From: Bacillus sp. 123MFChir2
Lineage (GTDB): Bacteria; Bacillota; Bacilli; Bacillales; Bacillaceae_G
Direction of reading: 5' to 3'
NCBI RefSeq assembly: GCF_000383235.1
Contig: NZ_KB910924.1
Location: 186,001 to 250,000, forward strand
Length of the DNA: 64,000 nt
In this document: piece by piece, positions 49,662-51,056 of the stretch
How positions within the stretch are numbered: the first letter of the stretch is position 1
How the letters are laid out: each line of letters opens with the position of its first letter
Position numbers and translations under genes: made by a program
Notes under the pieces: model-generated
Seen by the model: only the letters and a program-made list of their open reading frames with translations
Database searches by the model: none
Told to the model about the DNA's origin: nothing

Positions 49662-49814
49662 ATCATATCACCTCAAGGCAACAAACAAAATTATAGCTAG
49701 CCATTGTATATTTGTCAATATTTTTTCTTTACACTATAATGAAGTCATTATAGGAAATAATATATAGATTATCATGTTTTTGAAAAAGATGCTACACTGA
49801 AAGGAGAGATTATT

Positions 49815-51056
49815 ATAAAAGCTAGCGGCATTGTTGTTGAATATAATCCATTTCACAATGGTCATGCTTATCATGTGCAACAAACCAAAAAGTTAACAAA
49901 TGCGGATATCATCATTGCTGTTATGAGTGGACCCTTCTTACAGCGCGGAGAACCGGCTCTCGTTTCAAAATGGGCACGAACACAAATGGCCTTAGCAAAT
50001 GGTGTAGACATTGTCGTCGAACTTCCATATGCTTTCGCAACGCAAAAAGCTGAAACATTTGCAGACGGTGCCATTTCAATATTAGATGCTCTTCGTGTCT
50101 CTGAAGTTTGCTTTGGGAGTGAAAGTGGTAATATCGAACATTTTTACAATACAGTTACTTTGCGTCAAGCTGAGCAGGTCGCATTCCATTCCCTCGTACA
50201 ACAATACTTAAAAACAGGAATGAGTTATGCGAAAGCAACTTCTGAGGCATTTTCATCCTTACAAAAAAACATAGCTACTATTGACATTTCAGAGCCTAAT
50301 AATATTTTAGGAATGCATTACATAGAAGCAATTATCAAACAAAAAAGTTTAATGAAAGCAAGTACAATTATGCGTTTCGCTTCGCACTATCATGACGAAA
50401 CATTTCAAGATGAACGAATTGCCAGTGCAACAAGCATTCGCAAACAATTATTTAATGATCCAAAAAATTTTTCAGCAATTATTCCCTTTATTCCAAAAGC
50501 GACAAAACTACTTTTAGAGCAATATATACATTCCTATCGCCTATTACATAATTGGGAGCATTATTTTCACTTACTAAAATATAAACTCCTAACAATGTCA
50601 CCATTGCAATTACAAAATATATACGAAGTAGAGGAAGGGTTGGAACATCGGATTTTATCTTCTATCCAAGAAGCAACTTCATTCACAAAATTTATGGAAA
50701 CATTAAAAACAAAGCGTTACACATGGACACGATTACAGCGCATTTGTACACACATTTTAACCAATACAACAAAAGAAGAGATACACAAAGCCCATGTAGA
50801 ACAACACGCACAATTTATTCGTTTACTCGGCATGTCCCAAAAAGGACAATCGTATATATCAGCAATGAAAAAGCAAATAACACTTCCATTGCTTTCTCAT
50901 ACAAAAGTGTTACAGCATCCTCTTCTAGATATAGACCGAAGAGCAAGCGCTGTTTATTTTTCTATTTTACAAGGAACCCTTTGTGGTGAAATGATAAAGC
51001 GTGATATAACGCAGCACCCCATTCGATATGACGAAGCGCAACATACATTTTTATAA
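49815..51056 (+). CDS. tmcAL: tRNA(Met) cytidine acetate ligase TmcAL, non-AUG start
   Basis: Forms N4-acetylcytidine at the wobble position of elongator tRNA-Met from acetate and ATP. The protein begins with the nucleotidyltransferase core GIVVEYNPFHNGHAYH (HNGH motif), then VMSGPFLQRGEPALVSKW. AAAGGAG ends at 49806, followed in frame by ATT (49809), ATT (49812) and ATA (49815). The family Met aligns with ATA at 49815, giving 413 residues versus 415 in B. subtilis. The first GTG (49875) would remove HNGH and has no ribosome-binding site, so I place the start at the AUU/AUA cluster. Confidence 0.85.
   Translation: MKASGIVVEYNPFHNGHAYHVQQTKKLTNADIIIAVMSGPFLQRGEPALVSKWARTQMALANGVDIVVELPYAFATQKAETFADGAISILDALRVSEVCFGSESGNIEHFYNTVTLRQAEQVAFHSLVQQYLKTGMSYAKATSEAFSSLQKNIATIDISEPNNILGMHYIEAIIKQKSLMKASTIMRFASHYHDETFQDERIASATSIRKQLFNDPKNFSAIIPFIPKATKLLLEQYIHSYRLLHNWEHYFHLLKYKLLTMSPLQLQNIYEVEEGLEHRILSSIQEATSFTKFMETLKTKRYTWTRLQRICTHILTNTTKEEIHKAHVEQHAQFIRLLGMSQKGQSYISAMKKQITLPLLSHTKVLQHPLLDIDRRASAVYFSILQGTLCGEMIKRDITQHPIRYDEAQHTFL

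What the first reader, a model, noticed from the sequence alone, without database searches (positions are those of the whole stretch)
49800..49877. tmcAL appears to start on AUA or AUU, with no AUG available
The catalytic N-terminus GIVVEYNPFHNGH lies upstream of the first conventional start (GTG, 49875). Going upstream in the same frame from it, I find no ATG, GTG or TTG as far as the AAAGGAG site (49800-49806). What is there is ATT-ATT-ATA at 49809-49817, at correct spacing, with ATA exactly where the family Met aligns. A single G to A change from ATG would explain it. Non-AUG starts such as AUU are known for autoregulated genes like infC; a tRNA-Met modification gene that depends on a near-cognate start could sense initiation fidelity or tRNA-Met state. 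I recall database entries for the B. cereus group starting at the GTG, with about 393 residues.
Basis: partly seen in the sequence, partly recalled or inferred. Interest (0 to 1): 0.78.

Follow-up and report, generated by a model that had tools for sequence, protein, structure and literature searches.

The report
tmcAL translation starting at AUA
A Bacillus gene for a tRNA-modifying enzyme appears to begin translation at the rare start codon AUA instead of AUG, which standard gene finders would miss, cutting off the enzyme's active site; rare start codons recur in this gene in related bacteria.

Summary
Between the in-frame stop (49758-49760) and GTG 49875 there is no ATG, GTG or TTG, yet the catalytic N-terminus KASGIVVEYNPFHNGH lies there. 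A 69%-identical relative (L100) keeps SD and ATA but has ACC for the adjacent ATT. All seven codon differences to L100 between ATA and GTG are synonymous, so the stretch is translated; GTG 49875 has a poor SD. Of 161 tmcAL genes examined outside the GTDB family of the Ectobacillus antri genome, all use ATG, GTG or TTG; of the 19 in it, seven use CTG and one ATA, the ATA one ambiguous. Of 377 gene ORFs tested in 21 stretches, nine lacked a usable canonical start: eight tmcAL copies and one false alarm. AUA and AUU starts with strong SDs are published for Firmicutes infC, ccpN and others, so this is a new member of a known kind. Most likely effect: low, IF3-gated TmcAL synthesis (inferred). That it senses tRNA-Met state is unsupported but not excluded.

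The parts
49712..49740 (+). putative tmcAL sigma-A promoter TTGTCA-N17-TATAAT, in the divergent tmcAL/ylbN(yceD) intergenic region
   Evidence: 11 of 12 consensus matches; TTTACA-TATAAT block conserved in the 8 aligned leaders. Transcription start near 49747 is inferred.
49690..49718 (-). putative divergent ylbN-rpmF promoter TTGACA-N17-TATAAT; its -35 overlaps that of tmcAL
   Evidence: 12 of 12 consensus matches
49800..49806 (+). Shine-Dalgarno site AAAGGAG, part of an 8-nt GAAAGGAG match to the 16S 3' end (tail sequence recalled)
   Evidence: duplex energy -14.3 kcal/mol, 4th strongest of 20 window genes; kept in L100
49815..49817 (+). AUA start codon of tmcAL
   Evidence: aligned with the start codon of the family; ATA in L100 and L084; profile and PDB matches begin at the next residue
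49815..51056 (+). tmcAL (ylbM), tRNA(Met) cytidine acetate ligase, 413 aa plus stop
49854..49865 (+). codons of HNGH, the HIGH-type motif, upstream of the first conventional start
   Evidence: HNGH present in 181 of 181 distinct copies read by the motif script (160 outside, 19 in the family, L100 and window) and in L159; catalytic role recalled
49875..49877 (+). first in-frame conventional start (GTG), judged an internal Val codon
   Evidence: SD duplex only -4.8 kcal/mol; conserved codons lie upstream of it

Best explanation
tmcAL in this genome is translated from AUA 49815, positioned by a strong SD. The initiator tRNA pairs imperfectly with AUA, so the codon should lower initiation, probably several-fold to tenfold by analogy with measured AUA/AUU starts in S. 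aureus, and make it dependent on IF3 stringency. The product is the full 413-residue TmcAL with an intact HNGH motif, made in small amounts. Within its GTDB family this gene repeatedly carries weak starts (ATA, CTG, TTG, GTG), which suggests that low TmcAL dosage is tolerated or selected. Shown by sequence: absence of conventional starts, conservation, SD, translated N-terminus. Inferred: reduced efficiency, IF3 dependence, tolerance of or selection for low dosage.
For: No conventional start. ATA aligns with the start position in the family, PDB and NCBIfam. 7 of 7 synonymous codon differences to L100 upstream of GTG. SD of -14.3 kcal/mol for ATA against -4.8 for GTG 49875. ATA shared with L100 (sisters, support 100/98) and present in L084. 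Canonical start in 161 of 161 other genes: 129 ATG, 19 TTG, 12 GTG by script and L159, read by eye as GTG. In the family 7 of 19 CTG, 5 TTG, 4 ATG, 2 GTG, 1 ATA; none of the 7 CTG copies has a canonical codon upstream in frame. Controls: 377 gene ORFs tested, 9 flagged, 8 of them tmcAL; infC shows ATT at its known start position in 19 of 19; tilS has a canonical codon available in 19 of 19. Published parallels: S. aureus AUA infC by ribosome profiling, and reporters of ccpN AUA, citZ AUA and cvfC1 AUU at about 10% of AUG in poor medium (PMC13009471, passages); ATG > ATA > ATT in a Listeria reporter (PMC13068326, passages).
Against: No expression, peptide or ribosome-profiling data for this gene. 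Only two genomes (window, L100) carry ATA unambiguously; L084 has in-frame ATGs 9 and 14 codons upstream, without an evident SD, and was not flagged. ATA is retained at 5 of 11 internal ATA codons between window and L100, so its persistence alone is weak evidence of constraint. The CTG copies lie in one clade of close species, so the counts are not independent. Genomes of the window's own group were not available. The infC control is soft: two ATGs follow its ATT three codons later, so infC would not have been flagged by the test.
Confidence: 0.88

Rival explanations
1. The protein really starts at GTG 49875 (393 aa) and the upstream codons are untranslated.
For: It is the first conventional start in the frame and gives 393 aa; the same GTG exists in L100.
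Against: It would lack HNGH and the first 20 residues; poor SD (-4.8 kcal/mol); 7 of 7 synonymous differences upstream of it; the relatives' start codons align upstream of it.
Confidence: 0.04
2. Initiation at AUU 49809 or 49812, giving one or two extra residues.
For: ATT 49812 is 5 nt and ATT 49809 2 nt after the SD; ATT 49809 is also in L100; AUU starts are known (infC).
Against: ATT 49812 is ACC in L100; the spacing is short, most so for 49809; neither is at the family start position; L084 has GTC and CTC before its ATA.
Confidence: 0.06
3. On why the codon is there, not whether it is used: the AUA is a drifted, tolerated mutation of a low-demand gene, with no selected regulatory role.
For: The gene is dispensable in B. 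subtilis (PMC4634966, passages read); rows of the same set use TTG, GTG and ATG; internal ATA codons are retained 5 of 11 times.
Against: Kept since the split of window and L100 (286 of 413 residues identical) with a strong SD; weak starts recur in the same gene in another lineage (7 CTG, 2 TTG, 1 GTG of 10 rows, none ATG).
Confidence: 0.4
4. The start acts as a feedback switch: TmcAL activity or Met-tRNA state changes AUA initiation.
For: TmcAL's ac4C34 blocks AUA reading by tRNA-Met (PMC12514573, passages read), so the enzyme that polices AUA begins at AUA.
Against: The known target is elongator tRNA-Met, not the initiator; a related clade uses CTG, not ATA, at the same place; tilS, the partner enzyme, has canonical codons available.
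Confidence: 0.07

Closest known systems
infC (IF3) non-AUG start in Firmicutes
   Same: near-cognate start with a strong SD, conserved over genera; ATT at that place in 19 of 19 family genomes here, AUA in S. aureus (PMC13009471), ATT confirmed in Listeria (PMC13068326)
   Different: infC is autoregulated by its own product at that codon (in E. coli; PMC13009471 discussion); no such loop is shown for TmcAL
ccpN AUA start (S. aureus, reported conserved in B. subtilis; PMC13009471)
   Same: same codon, extended SD, conserved; measured at about 10% of AUG in poor medium, up to 30% in rich
   Different: a transcription repressor, not a tRNA modification enzyme
E. coli pcnB AUU start
   Same: chromosomal gene held low by an inefficient start (title of reference 73 in PMC13009471; otherwise recalled)
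   Different: different gene, codon and phylum
solved TmcAL of PDB 5y0n-5y0q (Bacillus subtilis YlbM; organism recalled)
   Same: orthologous protein, aligned from residue 2 to the end
   Different: the Bacillus halotolerans and B. velezensis copies examined start with ATG (L050, L053)

Membership tests
TmcAL (NCBIfam NF010191) | full-length profile match over cut-off | tested here: met
   497 bits against 360, profile positions 2-391 of 392
TmcAL (NCBIfam NF010191) | N-terminal HNGH motif in the translated product | tested here: met
   present at 49854-49865; in the product only if translation starts upstream of it
TmcAL (NCBIfam NF010191) | makes ac4C34 in elongator tRNA-Met | not testable with these tools
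   needs tRNA mass spectrometry
bacterial genes with near-cognate (non-AUG/GUG/UUG) starts | no conventional start upstream of conserved coding sequence | tested here: met
bacterial genes with near-cognate (non-AUG/GUG/UUG) starts | strong SD at proper spacing | tested here: met
   -14.3 kcal/mol, 8 nt
bacterial genes with near-cognate (non-AUG/GUG/UUG) starts | conservation of the near-cognate codon in relatives | tested here: met
   met in one relative, L100; L084 has ATA but also upstream ATGs; 5 of 11 internal ATA codons are kept too
bacterial genes with near-cognate (non-AUG/GUG/UUG) starts | initiation seen at that codon (profiling, N-terminal peptide) | not testable with these tools
   no such data held
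genes autoregulated through their start codon (infC type) | the gene product alters initiation at its own codon | not testable with these tools
   needs reporters

The most novel reading that the evidence does not exclude
The start codon of tmcAL is a fidelity sensor: the enzyme that stops tRNA-Met reading AUA is itself started at AUA, so that a change in C34 acetylation or in initiator discrimination feeds back on its synthesis, and other lineages keep the gene on other near-cognate codons for the same reason.
Probability: 0.06. Interest if true: 0.85.

Novelty: new member of a known kind. Interest (0 to 1): 0.5.

Why it matters
Gene finders limited to ATG/GTG/TTG would strip the HNGH motif from TmcAL here, so databases may list a truncated protein. 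The gene joins a short list of conserved AUA starts in Firmicutes, and the recurrence of weak starts in one tRNA-modification gene gives a testable case for tuning by start codon.

Tried and rejected
Rejected readings. Upstream ORF control: the window has an 8-codon ORF, ATG 49774 to TGA 49798-49800, but its ATG is ACG in L100, so it is not conserved; in L100 a different short frame ends in TAA overlapping ATA. Start at CTG 49797: it lies upstream of the SD and is TCG in L100. Leader structure: the fold of 49748-49880 gave -15.3 kcal/mol with no shuffle control; nothing is concluded. A first version of the missing-start test flagged 107 of 472 ORFs because upstream DNA is conserved between close genomes; it was replaced by tests using hits under 75% identity (417 ORFs, most flags being antisense frames by my reading) and then with overlapping frames removed (9 of 377 flagged). 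The one non-tmcAL flag (L135, an ATG-start gene) looks like the conserved SD region of that gene. One CTG copy (L092/L138) escaped the flag, by my reading because of a GTG at its sixth codon; L084/G003 escaped because of its upstream ATGs.

Searches that gave nothing for the question: plasmids and phages by megablast of 46000-56000 (one 79-bp plasmid match; none). Further viral-contig scans for more copies returned only the same IMG taxon. Papers on the TmcAL start codon: none seen in the searches (open-licence PMC papers only; listings and abstract openings seen; two searches listed 30 of 258 and 15 of 24 papers, and most of the titles are unrelated). Passages were read of PMC13009471, PMC4634966, PMC12514573, PMC13068326 and PMC7408541; no paper was read whole and no supplement was seen.

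Full report
What is there. The sequence reads AAAGGAG (49800-49806), AG, ATT ATT ATA AAA GCT AGC GGC ATT GTT GTT GAA TAT AAT CCA TTT CAC AAT GGT CAT GCT TAT CAT GTG. The frame is open from 49761, after the stop at 49758-49760, to the stop at 51054-51056. Its first ATG, GTG or TTG is GTG 49875. Read from ATA, the protein is TmcAL/YlbM: NCBIfam NF010191 matches from profile position 2, and the solved chains 5y0n-5y0q align from residue 2 to the last. So the ATA stands where the family has its start, and a start at GTG would drop the HNGH motif (49854-49865).

The stretch is translated. The only close relative found, L100 (IMG/VR contig IMGVR_UViG_2547132164_000004; 286 of 413 residues identical), differs from the window in 7 of the 19 codons between ATA and GTG, and all 7 differences are synonymous. 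With a synonymous share of 0.199 for random changes in these codons, that has P about 1.2e-5. Against L084 (240 of 410 identical) 8 of the 19 codons differ, 6 of them synonymously.

Which codon. ATT 49812 is ACC in L100 and CTG 49797 is TCG, while SD and ATA are kept. ATT 49809 is kept in L100 but lies 2 nt from the SD. ATA lies 8 nt from it. The predicted pairing with the 16S tail (recalled sequence) is -14.3 kcal/mol, 4th strongest of 20 window genes when the other 19 are given their best candidate start; upstream of ATT 49812 it is -13.6 and upstream of GTG 49875 -4.8. Against a strong claim of constraint, 5 of 11 internal ATA codons of the window are also ATA in L100, so persistence of ATA by itself proves little.

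Other genomes. A search of 299 genomes of the order gave 298 with a match, of which I took the 30 loci offered (27 new) and 79 short stretches (one search favoured rows with short open frames). Of these 185 loci outside the family of G001 (the Ectobacillus antri genome), 24 repeats were dropped and one, L159, has a variant motif. The start codons were 129 ATG, 19 TTG and 12 GTG in the 160 left, and L159 was read by eye as GTG: 161 of 161 canonical. For the 79 genome-contig loci 'outside' means not identical to one of the 19 family genomes; their GTDB family was not looked up. In all 19 family genomes that the tool held: 7 CTG, 5 TTG, 4 ATG, 2 GTG, 1 ATA. Fisher's test gives 3e-9 for 8 of 19 near-cognate against 0 of 161, and 5e-8 for ATG in 4 of 21 (window and L100 included) against 129 of 161, but the species are related and these are not true probabilities. 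No genome over 61% identical came up, so the window's own group seems not to be held.

Tree. In a tree of 42 rows made without the start codon, window and L100 are sisters (100/98). They fall with L082 (ATG), L083 and L006/L085 (TTG), L084 (ATA) and L086 (GTG) in a set of eight (95/95). The CTG copies lie in a set of ten rows with two TTG and one GTG but no ATG (81/95, not starred), inside a well supported clade of 13. The ATA label needs two changes; the near-cognate state as a whole needs five. The ancestral codon cannot be told. L084 (G003) is ambiguous: two in-frame ATGs lie 9 and 14 codons upstream of its ATA, without an evident SD, whereas its ATA follows AGAAAGGAGG with a pairing of -26.1 kcal/mol. 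None of the seven CTG copies, nor L100 or the window, has a canonical codon in frame upstream.

Controls. In the 19 family neighbourhoods, the window and L100, 377 gene ORFs with at least four relatives under 75% identity were tested for conserved coding sequence upstream of the first canonical start. Nine were flagged: tmcAL of the window, L100 and six CTG genomes, and one false alarm in L135. infC, a known non-AUG gene, shows ATT at the expected place in 19 of 19 family genomes; two ATGs follow three codons later, so this shows that the codon is conserved, not that the test would catch it. tilS, the partner in AUA decoding, has at least one canonical codon upstream of its conserved core in 19 of 19.

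How it most likely works. A sigma-A-like promoter (TTGTCA-N17-TATAAT, 49712-49740) overlaps the -35 of the divergent ylbN promoter and would give a leader of about 65-70 nt. A strong SD places AUA in the P site. By analogy with S. aureus, where AUA and AUU starts with extended SDs gave about 10% of AUG output in poor medium and up to 30% in rich medium for ccpN (PMC13009471, passages read), and Listeria, where a reporter gave ATG > ATA > ATT (PMC13068326, passages read), TmcAL should be made at a low rate that depends on IF3 stringency. This is inference. The gene is dispensable in B. subtilis (PMC4634966, passages read), so low supply may simply be tolerated; I give drift 0.4 as an account of why the codon is there.

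The attractive idea that the AUA is a sensor rests only on function: ac4C34 made by TmcAL blocks AUA reading by tRNA-Met (PMC12514573, passages read). Against it, initiation uses the initiator tRNA, a related clade keeps CTG at the same place, and tilS shows no need of such a start. I keep it as the most novel reading at 0.06.

Verdict. No earlier report was seen in the searches listed under Tried and rejected, which cover only open-licence PMC papers.

Noticed in passing
L088, L089, L092, L093, L095, L096, L097 (codon just before the conserved tmcAL N-terminus): tmcAL starts at CTG in 7 of 10 species of one group, the other three using TTG or GTG, with SD GGAGGTG; no canonical codon lies upstream in frame in any of the seven.
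   Followed up: partly
L100 1906-1920 and L246 2928-2942: In the genome of IMG taxon 2547132164 a prophage appears to sit between ylbN and tmcAL: two contig ends share a 15-base core (GTTTTTTCTTTACAC) in the spacer of the overlapping promoters, and the tmcAL -35 position there reads TAGTGT.
   Followed up: partly
window 49690-49740: Putative divergent ylbN-rpmF and tmcAL promoters overlap at a shared TTGTCAA/TTGACAA -35; the region is well conserved in most of the 8 aligned leaders.
   Followed up: no
L186-L204: infC has ATT at its known start position in all 19 family genomes held.
   Followed up: partly
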